From positions 1,703,001 through 1,767,000 of the forward strand of contig NZ_CP012646.1 in the NCBI RefSeq assembly GCF_001281025.1: a stretch of DNA of 64,000 nt, given 5' to 3'. This document shows, one piece after another, positions 63,070 to 64,000 of this stretch. Positions within the stretch are counted from its first letter, which is position 1; the number at the start of each line of letters is the position of its first letter. Origin of the DNA: Streptococcus mitis. Its GTDB lineage: Bacteria; Bacillota; Bacilli; Lactobacillales; Streptococcaceae. The translations under genes were made by a program, and so were the position numbers. Under the pieces are notes generated by a model. That model made no database searches. It saw only the letters and a list, made by a program, of their open reading frames with translations, and was not told the DNA's origin.

Positions 63070-64000
63070 CTAATTCATTGGATGATGTTGGTTATAGAGG
63101 TTGATAATATCGCGCGCAATAGAAGGTCCGACACCATTTGTAAGGTTGGTGTTATGAGGGAAGACAACAGCTACAGCGATTTGAGGATTATCTGATGGTG
63201 CATAAGCCACAGCATTGGTATTGTTAGCTTTTTGACCTCCCTCAACATAACTTTCGGCAGTACCTGTTTTACCACTAATGGATACAGCTGCACCATTGGA
63301 AAAGGCACGACCTGTCGTCAGAGCACTCCCACCATGTGAAACTTGATAAAATCCTTGTTGGAGGATGGAAACATCAGACTCAGAAATATTAATTTTATTC
63401 ATTTCCTTGGTATCAATAGATTGGATTAAGTTCCCTAAGCCGCCTTGTTCATTATTTCCATAAATTCCCTCAACAATGTGAGGTGCAATTCGAACACCAT
63501 TGTTAGCAATGGTTCCAACGTACTGGGCCAATTGCATTGGGGTGTAGTTATCAAACTGACCAAATGCATTGGTAATGTAATTAGCGAAATTATACTCTTT
63601 TGGTATAAAACCAGTTGACTCATTTGGAAGGTCAATGCCTGTTGAGGCTCCAAGACCATATTCAGCAAATGTCGAACGAAGTTTCCCCATAGCGGATTCT
63701 AAATTGTTAGTTAAAACAAACATATTTGGTTGATAGGTCTGGCCCATGATTCCAAGAGCGGTTTGAACCACGTAAGCATTAGATGAATACTCCAAGGCTT
63801 CCACAGCTGTAATAGGAAAAGATCCATATGCCAATTTATACCAAGAATAAATTGGAGCTGAACCTTGGAAAACAATAGGCTGATCTGTTAAGGTTTGGTT
63901 TCCTGATAAAACACCATTTTCCCAACCTGAGCTGATGGTAGCGGCCTTAACAACCGAACCGGGTACAAAGACATTGGTCACAGTTCCCAAGGAATCCTGT
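63070..64000 (-). CDS. pbp2b: Penicillin-binding protein 2b, C-terminal part (cut by the window end)
   Basis: The C-terminal transpeptidase part of an essential class B PBP for peripheral peptidoglycan. Active-site motifs in order: SVVK with the nucleophile Ser, SSN in YSSNAYVV, and KTG in SGKTGTAES; the C-terminus ends YNQHHPMN. Using the pneumococcal numbering (nucleophile Ser386, consistent with the spacing to SSN 443-445), residue 446 is Ala and 476 is Gly. Both positions are changed in low-affinity pneumococcal PBP2b, where susceptible strains have Thr446 and Glu476. The 5' part of the gene lies beyond 64000. Overlap with recR is none (10-base gap). Confidence 0.96.
   Translation of the reverse strand, partial: QDSLGTVTNVFVPGSVVKAATISSGWENGVLSGNQTLTDQPIVFQGSAPIYSWYKLAYGSFPITAVEALEYSSNAYVVQTALGIMGQTYQPNMFVLTNNLESAMGKLRSTFAEYGLGASTGIDLPNESTGFIPKEYNFANYITNAFGQFDNYTPMQLAQYVGTIANNGVRIAPHIVEGIYGNNEQGGLGNLIQSIDTKEMNKINISESDVSILQQGFYQVSHGGSALTTGRAFSNGAAVSISGKTGTAESYVEGGQKANNTNAVAYAPSDNPQIAVAVVFPHNTNLTNGVGPSIARDIINLYNQHHPMN

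What the first reader, a model, noticed from the sequence alone, without database searches (positions are those of the whole stretch)
63070..64000. PBP2b with resistance-type residues next to the SSN motif
Seen: the frame reads SSNA at 443-446 (GCT at 63777-63775) and SAMGKL, giving Gly at 476, with the nucleophile motif SVVK fixed at 386 by spacing. Known: in S. pneumoniae PBP2b, Thr446Ala and Glu476Gly accompany low beta-lactam affinity, and these alleles move between Mitis-group species. Inference: this strain may carry, or be a donor of, a reduced-affinity allele; in S. mitis Ala446 could also be the native state.
Basis: partly seen in the sequence, partly recalled or inferred. Interest (0 to 1): 0.72.

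Follow-up and report, generated by a model that had tools for sequence, protein, structure and literature searches.

The report
Imported resistance-type block in pbp2b
A mouth streptococcus related to Streptococcus mitis carries, inside its own cell-wall-building gene pbp2b, a short stretch of acquired DNA of the kind seen in penicillin-resistant pneumococci; the kind is well known, and one of the two residues that raised suspicion is normal for these species.

Summary
The residues are as reported: S386VVK, S443SN, Ala446 and Gly476 of PBP2b. The two do not mean the same. Gly476 is native: 96 of 100 Mitis-group species genomes have it, one has Glu, and it lies outside the imported DNA. Ala446 (54 of 100) alone is a weak marker, but here it sits in an acquired block: nt 996-1371 of the gene is 98.9% identical to S. 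mitis 850_SMIT and about 83% to the relatives G088/G097, which match the rest of the gene at 92-95%. The block carries Tyr422-Lys426-Leu427-Ala446-Val448; residues 373-466 equal PDB 2wae (resistant strain 5204, recalled). Twenty-seven of 100 species genomes share its core: 60 nt do not vary among them, against pi 0.23 in the other 73. Two genomes have nearly the same core without Tyr422, Lys426 and Ala446. PBP2x (SALK) and PBP1a are mosaic too; the second PBP2b block (N606D/L609T/A619G) is absent. Verdict: an acquired mosaic allele of a known kind; reduced affinity is likely but unmeasured.

The parts
63070..64000 (-). 3' part of pbp2b (C-terminal 309 residues); the gene goes on outside the window to L002:8128
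   Evidence: NCBIfam strep_PBP2B 1089.2 bits against cut-off 975 for the whole protein
63742..64000 (-). part of the imported block that lies in the window (gene nt 1113-1371; the block begins at nt 996, outside the window, at what would be 64117)
63696..63742 (-). interval of the right breakpoint (between informative sites nt 1371 and 1417, G088/G097 against 850_SMIT)
63733..63912 (-). shared core, gene nt 1201-1380: 16 variable columns among 27 carriers
63793..63852 (-). gene nt 1261-1320: no variable column among the 27 carriers
63946..63957 (-). active-site motif S386-V-V-K389
63832..63849 (-). Tyr422, Lys426, Leu427
63778..63786 (-). S443-S-N445 motif
63775..63777 (-). Ala446 (GCT), inside the import
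63769..63771 (-). Val448 (GTG), in 2 of 100 genomes
63685..63687 (-). Gly476 (GGG), outside the import, native state of the group
63262..63270 (-). K615-T-G617 motif
63256..63297 (-). Asn606, Ala609, Ala619: second resistance-type block not present
62463..63059 (-). recR, no import step seen
61243..62286 (-). ddl, no import step seen

Best explanation
The gene is the ordinary class B transpeptidase gene pbp2b of an S. mitis-complex commensal into which a segment of about 376-420 bp from another S. mitis lineage has recombined. Shown: the block and its boundaries, its near-identity to S. mitis 850_SMIT, its core shared by 27 of 100 species genomes, and mosaic PBP2x and PBP1a in the same strain. 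Inferred: uptake was by natural transformation; the block slows acylation of Ser386 by beta-lactams while leaving transpeptidation intact, through Ala446 beside the SSN motif and the linked Tyr422/Lys426 (perhaps Val448); PBP2b then adds low-level reduced susceptibility to whatever the altered PBP2x and PBP1a give. The shared core most likely arose once from an ordinary allele like those of G098 and G094 and spread between species, penicillin being the likely selecting agent.
For: Sites separating G088/G097 from 850_SMIT are 850_SMIT-like at 55 of 55 positions in nt 996-1371 and 19 of 286 elsewhere; 0 of 99 shuffles reach the score in each of nine recipient-donor combinations. Identity of the block 98.9% to 850_SMIT against 83.6/83.3% to G088/G097, reversed on both sides. 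Residues 373-466 equal 2wae. No variable column in nt 1261-1320 among 27 carriers; pi 0.231 there in the other 73. Carrier label: 2 changes on the core tree (4 without the diagnostic codons), 17 on the recR tree. Carriers more often have A338 in PBP2x (14 of 27 against 15 of 73) and Ala/Ser371 in PBP1a (12 of 27 against 3 of 73). Own PBP2x SALK and imported PBP1a C-terminal part. T446A was reported to lower affinity by 60% (cited in a passage of PMC8921733).
Against: No MIC, binding or growth data. Six of 27 carriers have unaltered STMK in both PBP2x and PBP1a. PBP1a Thr432 does not go with the block (12 of 27 against 27 of 73, p = 0.50). Associations ignore shared ancestry. With LQJ-218 as recipient the block's right end comes out differently in all three combinations (nt 1434, 1707, 2040). 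The second PBP2b block is absent. Published genotype rules agreed with phenotype in 25 of 33 S. mitis (PMC10018206, passages), and the effect of such motifs in commensals is called undetermined (PMC8715442, section 16).
Confidence: 0.85

Rival explanations
1. Ala446 and Gly476 are both simply the native state of this lineage and have nothing to do with penicillin.
For: True for Gly476 (96 of 100). Ala446 is in 27 of 73 genomes without the block, 16 of these 27 with unaltered STMK in PBP2x and PBP1a.
Against: The closest alleles outside the block (G088, G097, SK642) have Thr446, and Ala446 lies in a block 16-17% different from G088/G097 and 1.1% from 850_SMIT.
Confidence: 0.08
2. T446A arose here by point mutation, without import.
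For: Ala446 occurs in several sequence backgrounds with two different codons, GCT and GCC.
Against: The surrounding silent sites change with it: 55 of 55 informative sites in nt 996-1371 are 850_SMIT-like.
Confidence: 0.02
3. The import is real but neutral: it happens to carry these residues and does not lower drug affinity in this host.
For: No phenotype here; small published effect of T446A in PBP2b on MIC (PMC4863584, passages); T446A reported in some penicillin-susceptible pneumococci (PMC8921733, passage).
Against: Very low diversity of the core among 27 species genomes and its association with altered PBP2x and PBP1a; mosaic PBP2x and PBP1a in the same strain.
Confidence: 0.15
4. The block is an assembly chimera or contamination.
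For: None found.
Against: One contig, 99.97% complete, 0.12% contamination, one match for the gene; 29 of the 120 closest database proteins carry the same Y-K-L-A-V residues; PBP2x and PBP1a elsewhere in the chromosome are mosaic in the same way.
Confidence: 0.01

Closest known systems
PBP2b of S. pneumoniae 5204 (PDB 2wad, 2wae; that the strain is a resistant clinical isolate is recalled)
   Same: Residues 373-466 identical, with P412, Y422, K426, L427, E438, A446, V448, I455
   Different: 590 of 680 residues identical overall; 5204 has the second block with A619G-type changes, the window has Asn606, Ala609, Ala619
Mosaic pbp2b blocks of resistant S. pneumoniae, S. mitis and S. oralis (PMC4863584, PMC8715442; passages, and section 16 of the latter)
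   Same: Short imported transpeptidase-domain segment carrying T446A; median acquired pbp2b fragment 206-229 bp in PMC8715442
   Different: Nothing in kind; here boundaries, nearest source and a shared core across 27 of 100 species genomes are shown
pbp2b of S. mitis 850_SMIT (G101)
   Same: 98.9% identical over the block
   Different: Met448; 80.7 and 78.2% identical on the two sides
Unmutated alleles G098 and G094 (S. mitis ColumbLawn)
   Same: Same DNA over residues 388-464 but for 4 nt (G098) or 5 nt (G094)
   Different: Asn422, Thr426, Thr446, Met448; rest of the gene different

Membership tests
Streptococcal PBP2b (class B transpeptidase) | Match to the family model above its cut-off | tested here: met
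   NF038278.1 strep_PBP2B 1089.2 bits, cut-off 975; PF00905
Streptococcal PBP2b (class B transpeptidase) | SxxK, SxN and KTG motifs intact | tested here: met
   S386VVK, S443SN, K615TG
Mosaic pbp2b allele | A block of different ancestry with boundaries inside the gene | tested here: met
Mosaic pbp2b allele of resistance type | T446A within the imported block | tested here: met
Mosaic pbp2b allele of resistance type | E476G as an acquired change | tested here: not met
   Gly476 is native and outside the block
Mosaic pbp2b allele of resistance type | Lower beta-lactam affinity of the protein | not testable with these tools
   needs purified protein
Mosaic pbp2b allele of resistance type | Raised MIC of the strain | not testable with these tools
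   no strain name or MIC available
PBP2b alleles with the second block (about residues 590-641; PMC9352194, passage) | N606D, L609T, A619G | tested here: not met
   Asn606, Ala609, Ala619

The most novel reading that the evidence does not exclude
One short pbp2b segment, made once by a few amino-acid changes in an ordinary Mitis-group allele, has swept horizontally through at least 27 streptococcal species, so that some 60-180 bp hold almost no diversity while both sides keep species-level divergence; the unmutated parent sequence still exists (G098, S. mitis ColumbLawn), and the window strain got the segment through a different S. mitis lineage.
Probability: 0.45. Interest if true: 0.55.

Novelty: new member of a known kind. 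Interest (0 to 1): 0.35.

Why it matters
It separates signal from background in a widely used marker set. Substitutions listed as resistance-related in pneumococci or commensals (E476G, Q438E, L455I; PMC8921733 and PMC12753535, passages) and S412P are the usual residues of the 100-genome Mitis-group panel, so they mark import from commensals rather than reduced affinity, while the linked Tyr422-Lys426-Ala446 haplotype marks one shared acquired segment. If the single-origin reading holds, the parent and derived segments give a natural pair for asking which changes were selected and when.

Tried and rejected
Rejected: Gly476 as a marker. Rejected: Ala446 alone as a sign of a resistance-type background; 16 of 27 A446 genomes without the block have unaltered STMK in PBP2x and PBP1a. 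Rejected: low diversity of the core by constraint; the 73 other genomes have pi 0.17-0.23 in the same windows, and three other haplotype groups show ratios of 1.06, 0.59 and 1.25 against 0.08. Rejected: import of recR, ddl or murF together with the block; none shows the block's identity step (23 genomes). Led nowhere: a species name for G000. ileS is 93-96% identical to 33 of 37 other genomes tried, whereas ftsA-ftsZ is 94-96% to 8 of 58 others, then 92, 89 and 78-86%, so neither is a clean backbone. The first translation was in the wrong frame. Literature searches: pbp2x + M339L gave 0 papers; at least two of N422Y, T426K, T446A gave 3; pbp2b + selective sweep + Streptococcus mitis + recombination gave 11, 8 listed. 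Of the papers, passages or one section of PMC11401357, PMC8715442 and PMC8321556 were seen, the rest as listings. None of what I saw describes this shared core, but the library lacks most subscription papers, so absence from print is not claimed.

Rows dropped: of 284 Streptococcus species genomes that matched, the 100 with at least 82% protein identity were analysed; the next listed ones are at 71% or less, the list was cut, and these 184 were not tallied. Of 80 named loci, 61 Mitis-group ones were used for naming (one, S. mitis CAMHZQ, matched no panel genome) and 16 of them in the flank table; the other 19 (S. suis and more distant) were not used. Of 4551 database proteins the 120 listed were tallied; they are the closest to the query, hence a biased sample. 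Against the linkage claim: among those 120, one protein has Y-K-L with Thr446 and two with Pro446. One of the 27 carriers (G139) has the other Ala446 codon and a different right end of the core. PBP1a Thr432 is not associated with the block.

Full report
Observation. The finding's frame is real. The minus strand at 63070-63999 encodes the last 309 residues of PBP2b, cut by the end of the window. The whole gene was read from the same genome (G000, one contig of 1906344 bases; window = C1:1703001-1767000) at L002:6071-8128. It matches NCBIfam strep_PBP2B above its cut-off. Alignment to PDB chains 2waf (R6) and 2wad/2wae (5204; strain names recalled) sets the standard numbering (ORF residue minus 5) and confirms S386VVK, S443SN, Ala446 and Gly476; codons were read from the window. 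Between residues 400 and 480 the window differs from R6 at S412P, N422Y, T426K, Q427L, Q438E, T446A, M448V, L455I, G467L, S469N and E476G. Residues 373-466 are identical to 2wae; over the whole protein 590 of 680 residues equal 2wae and 585 equal R6.

How common the residues are. A search of 284 Streptococcus genomes (one per species) found a match in all 284; 100 match the window protein at 82% identity or more and form the Mitis-group panel, the next listed being at 71%. In that panel Gly476 is in 96, Ala in 2, Glu in 1 and Arg in 1; Ala446 is in 54 and Thr446 in 46. Pro412 is in 88, Glu438 in 87 and Ile455 in 74, and in 39, 39 and 40 of the 46 Thr446 genomes; Gly476 is in 42 of these 46. 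So these four are background. Tyr422 and Lys426 are different: both are in the same 27 genomes, with Leu427 and Ala446 in 27 of 27. Val448 is in 2 of 100, the window genome and G089 (S. mitis OD_317805_11). Among the 120 closest of 4551 database proteins all 120 have Gly476; 85 have Y-K-L-A, 29 of them with Val448; one has Y-K-L-T and two Y-K-L-P.

Mosaic structure. Outside the middle of the gene the closest alleles are mostly those of G088, G097 and S. mitis SK642 (G107), which have Asn422, Thr426, Gln427 and Thr446. In the middle they are not. Sites that separate G088/G097 from S. mitis 850_SMIT (G101) are 850_SMIT-like at 55 of 55 positions from nt 996 to 1371 and at 19 of 286 elsewhere; the log-likelihood ratio is 108.5, at most 11.2 in 99 shuffles. 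Eight other recipient-donor combinations also gave 0 of 99. In seven of the nine the segment ends between nt 1371 and 1434; with LQJ-218 as recipient and G089 or G226 as donor it runs to nt 1707 and 2040, LQJ-218 being only 80.1% identical to the window in the C-terminal part. In identity terms the block is 98.9% to 850_SMIT and 83.6/83.3% to G088/G097, while the N-terminal part is 80.7 against 92.5/93.4% and the C-terminal part 78.2 against 94.5/94.8%; recR, ddl and murF show no such step. In window coordinates the block runs from 63742 to the window's end and on to about 64117; its right breakpoint lies in 63696-63742; Gly476 (63685-63687) is outside it.

A shared core. Among the 27 carriers pi is 0.005, 0.000 and 0.027 in nt 1201-1260, 1261-1320 and 1321-1380, and 0.05-0.19 in the other windows of the gene; in the 73 others it is 0.171, 0.231 and 0.176 in these three windows. 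The middle window has no variable column among the 27; the whole 180 nt have 16. With the five diagnostic codons removed the 27 still have 0.010 in nt 1201-1380 against 0.126 in the rest of the gene (ratio 0.08); the ratio is 1.06, 0.59 and 1.25 in three other haplotype groups and 0.95 in all 73 others. The carrier label needs 2 changes on the tree of the core (4 without the diagnostic codons), 12 and 9 on trees of the two gene ends and 17 on the recR tree, with shuffled means of about 24. recR can recombine too, so 17 is not a count of transfers. The 18 carriers with a record label include ones labelled S. pneumoniae 19F, S. pseudopneumoniae, S. mitis, S. oralis, S. infantis, S. thalassemiae and S. 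peroris ATCC 700780; labels are those of the records and some may be wrong. Constraint does not explain this; repeated transfer of one segment does.

Possible parent. Two genomes, G098 and S. mitis ColumbLawn (G094), have the same DNA through residues 388-464 but for 4 and 5 nt. From G098 to the window these are N422Y, T426K, T446A and M448V with no silent change, against 85 amino-acid and 240 silent codon differences in the rest of the gene (p = 0.005; the same test gives 0.028, 0.031 and 0.063 for three other carriers). G094 differs by one silent change more. LQJ-218 (G219) is 12 nt from the carriers' consensus over nt 1201-1380. Asn422 is in all 73 genomes without the block and Thr426 in 72, so these are probably the older states. 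A parent-to-derived direction is the simplest reading but rests on two genomes.

The other targets. PBP2x of the same strain has SALK where R6 has STMK (A338, L339); Leu339 occurs in this genome only among 100. PBP1a keeps STMK but has Thr432 and NTGY at 574-577. Both genes are mosaic: PBP1a nt 1701-1850 is identical to S. mitis SK564 and two other genomes but 15.3% from G088; PBP2x nt 1101-1350 is 1.3-2.0% from its nearest neighbours and 14.7-16.0% from G088. Two adjacent FemAB-family genes are present, taken as murM and murN by recalled context; NCBIfam gave only sub-cut-off matches. In the panel, A338 in PBP2x is in 14 of 27 carriers and 15 of 73 others (p = 0.005), Ala/Ser371 in PBP1a in 12 of 27 and 3 of 73 (p = 4e-6), NTGY in 17 of 27 and 29 of 73 (p = 0.045), but Thr432 in 12 of 27 and 27 of 73 (p = 0.50). 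An altered STMK in PBP2x or PBP1a is in 21 of 27 carriers, 11 of 27 other A446 genomes and 5 of 46 T446 genomes. These tests ignore shared ancestry. The second PBP2b block is absent: Asn606, Ala609, Ala619.

Mechanism. From general knowledge of these enzymes, beta-lactams acylate Ser386. T446A was reported to lower penicillin affinity by 60% (Pagliero 2004, as cited in a passage of PMC8921733), and PBP2b T446A gives only a small MIC rise (PMC4863584, passages). The window strain is therefore expected to have a lower-affinity PBP2b and, with its PBP2x and PBP1a, some reduced susceptibility; this was not measured. Caution is due: the effect of such motifs in commensals is called undetermined (PMC8715442, section 16), and genotype agreed with penicillin phenotype in 25 of 33 S. 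mitis (PMC10018206, abstract and passages).

Literature seen. Passages of PMC4863584, PMC9352194, PMC11401357, PMC10018206, PMC8715442 (section 16 in 60), PMC12753535, PMC8921733, PMC5404556 and PMC8321556. Other papers were seen in search listings only. PMC12753535 lists E476G among resistance-related changes of an S. oralis with penicillin MIC 0.25; in the panel this residue is the usual state. PMC8921733 lists E476G, T446A, Q438E and L455I as the commonest PBP2b substitutions in 300 Chinese pneumococci; three of the four are usual in the panel and are what an import from commensals would often bring.

Verdict. Observation confirmed; interpretation half right. The allele is an acquired mosaic of a well-known kind. 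What is added is the removal of Gly476 and three companions as markers, the boundaries and nearest source of the import, and the evidence that its core is one segment shared by 27 of 100 species genomes with surviving unmutated counterparts.

Noticed in passing
L003:637-2889 (+), PBP2x of G000: SALK in place of STMK: Leu339 is unique among 100 panel genomes, and a paper search for pbp2x with M339L gave 0 papers.
   Followed up: partly
L003, PBP2x gene nt 1401-1650: No panel genome is closer than 14.7-16.7% DNA difference in these windows, which points to a donor not sampled here.
   Followed up: no
L006:1141-3303 (-), PBP1a of G000: The C-terminal part (gene nt about 1600-2000, with NTGY) is imported: 0-3.3% from S. 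mitis SK564, 15-27% from G088.
   Followed up: partly
window 56000-58900: ftsA-ftsZ stretch is 94-96% identical to 8 of 58 other genomes, then 92, 89 and 78-86%, whereas ileS (49926-52718) is 93-96% to 33 of 37: a divergent ftsA-ftsZ haplogroup.
   Followed up: no
G153 (record S. peroris ATCC 700780): Carries the block (Y-K-L-A) together with SGMK in PBP2x and SAMK in PBP1a.
   Followed up: no
P0007, P0022, P0045 (database proteins): Y-K-L with Thr446 (P0007) or Pro446 (P0022, P0045): rare departures from the linkage, possibly intermediates.
   Followed up: no
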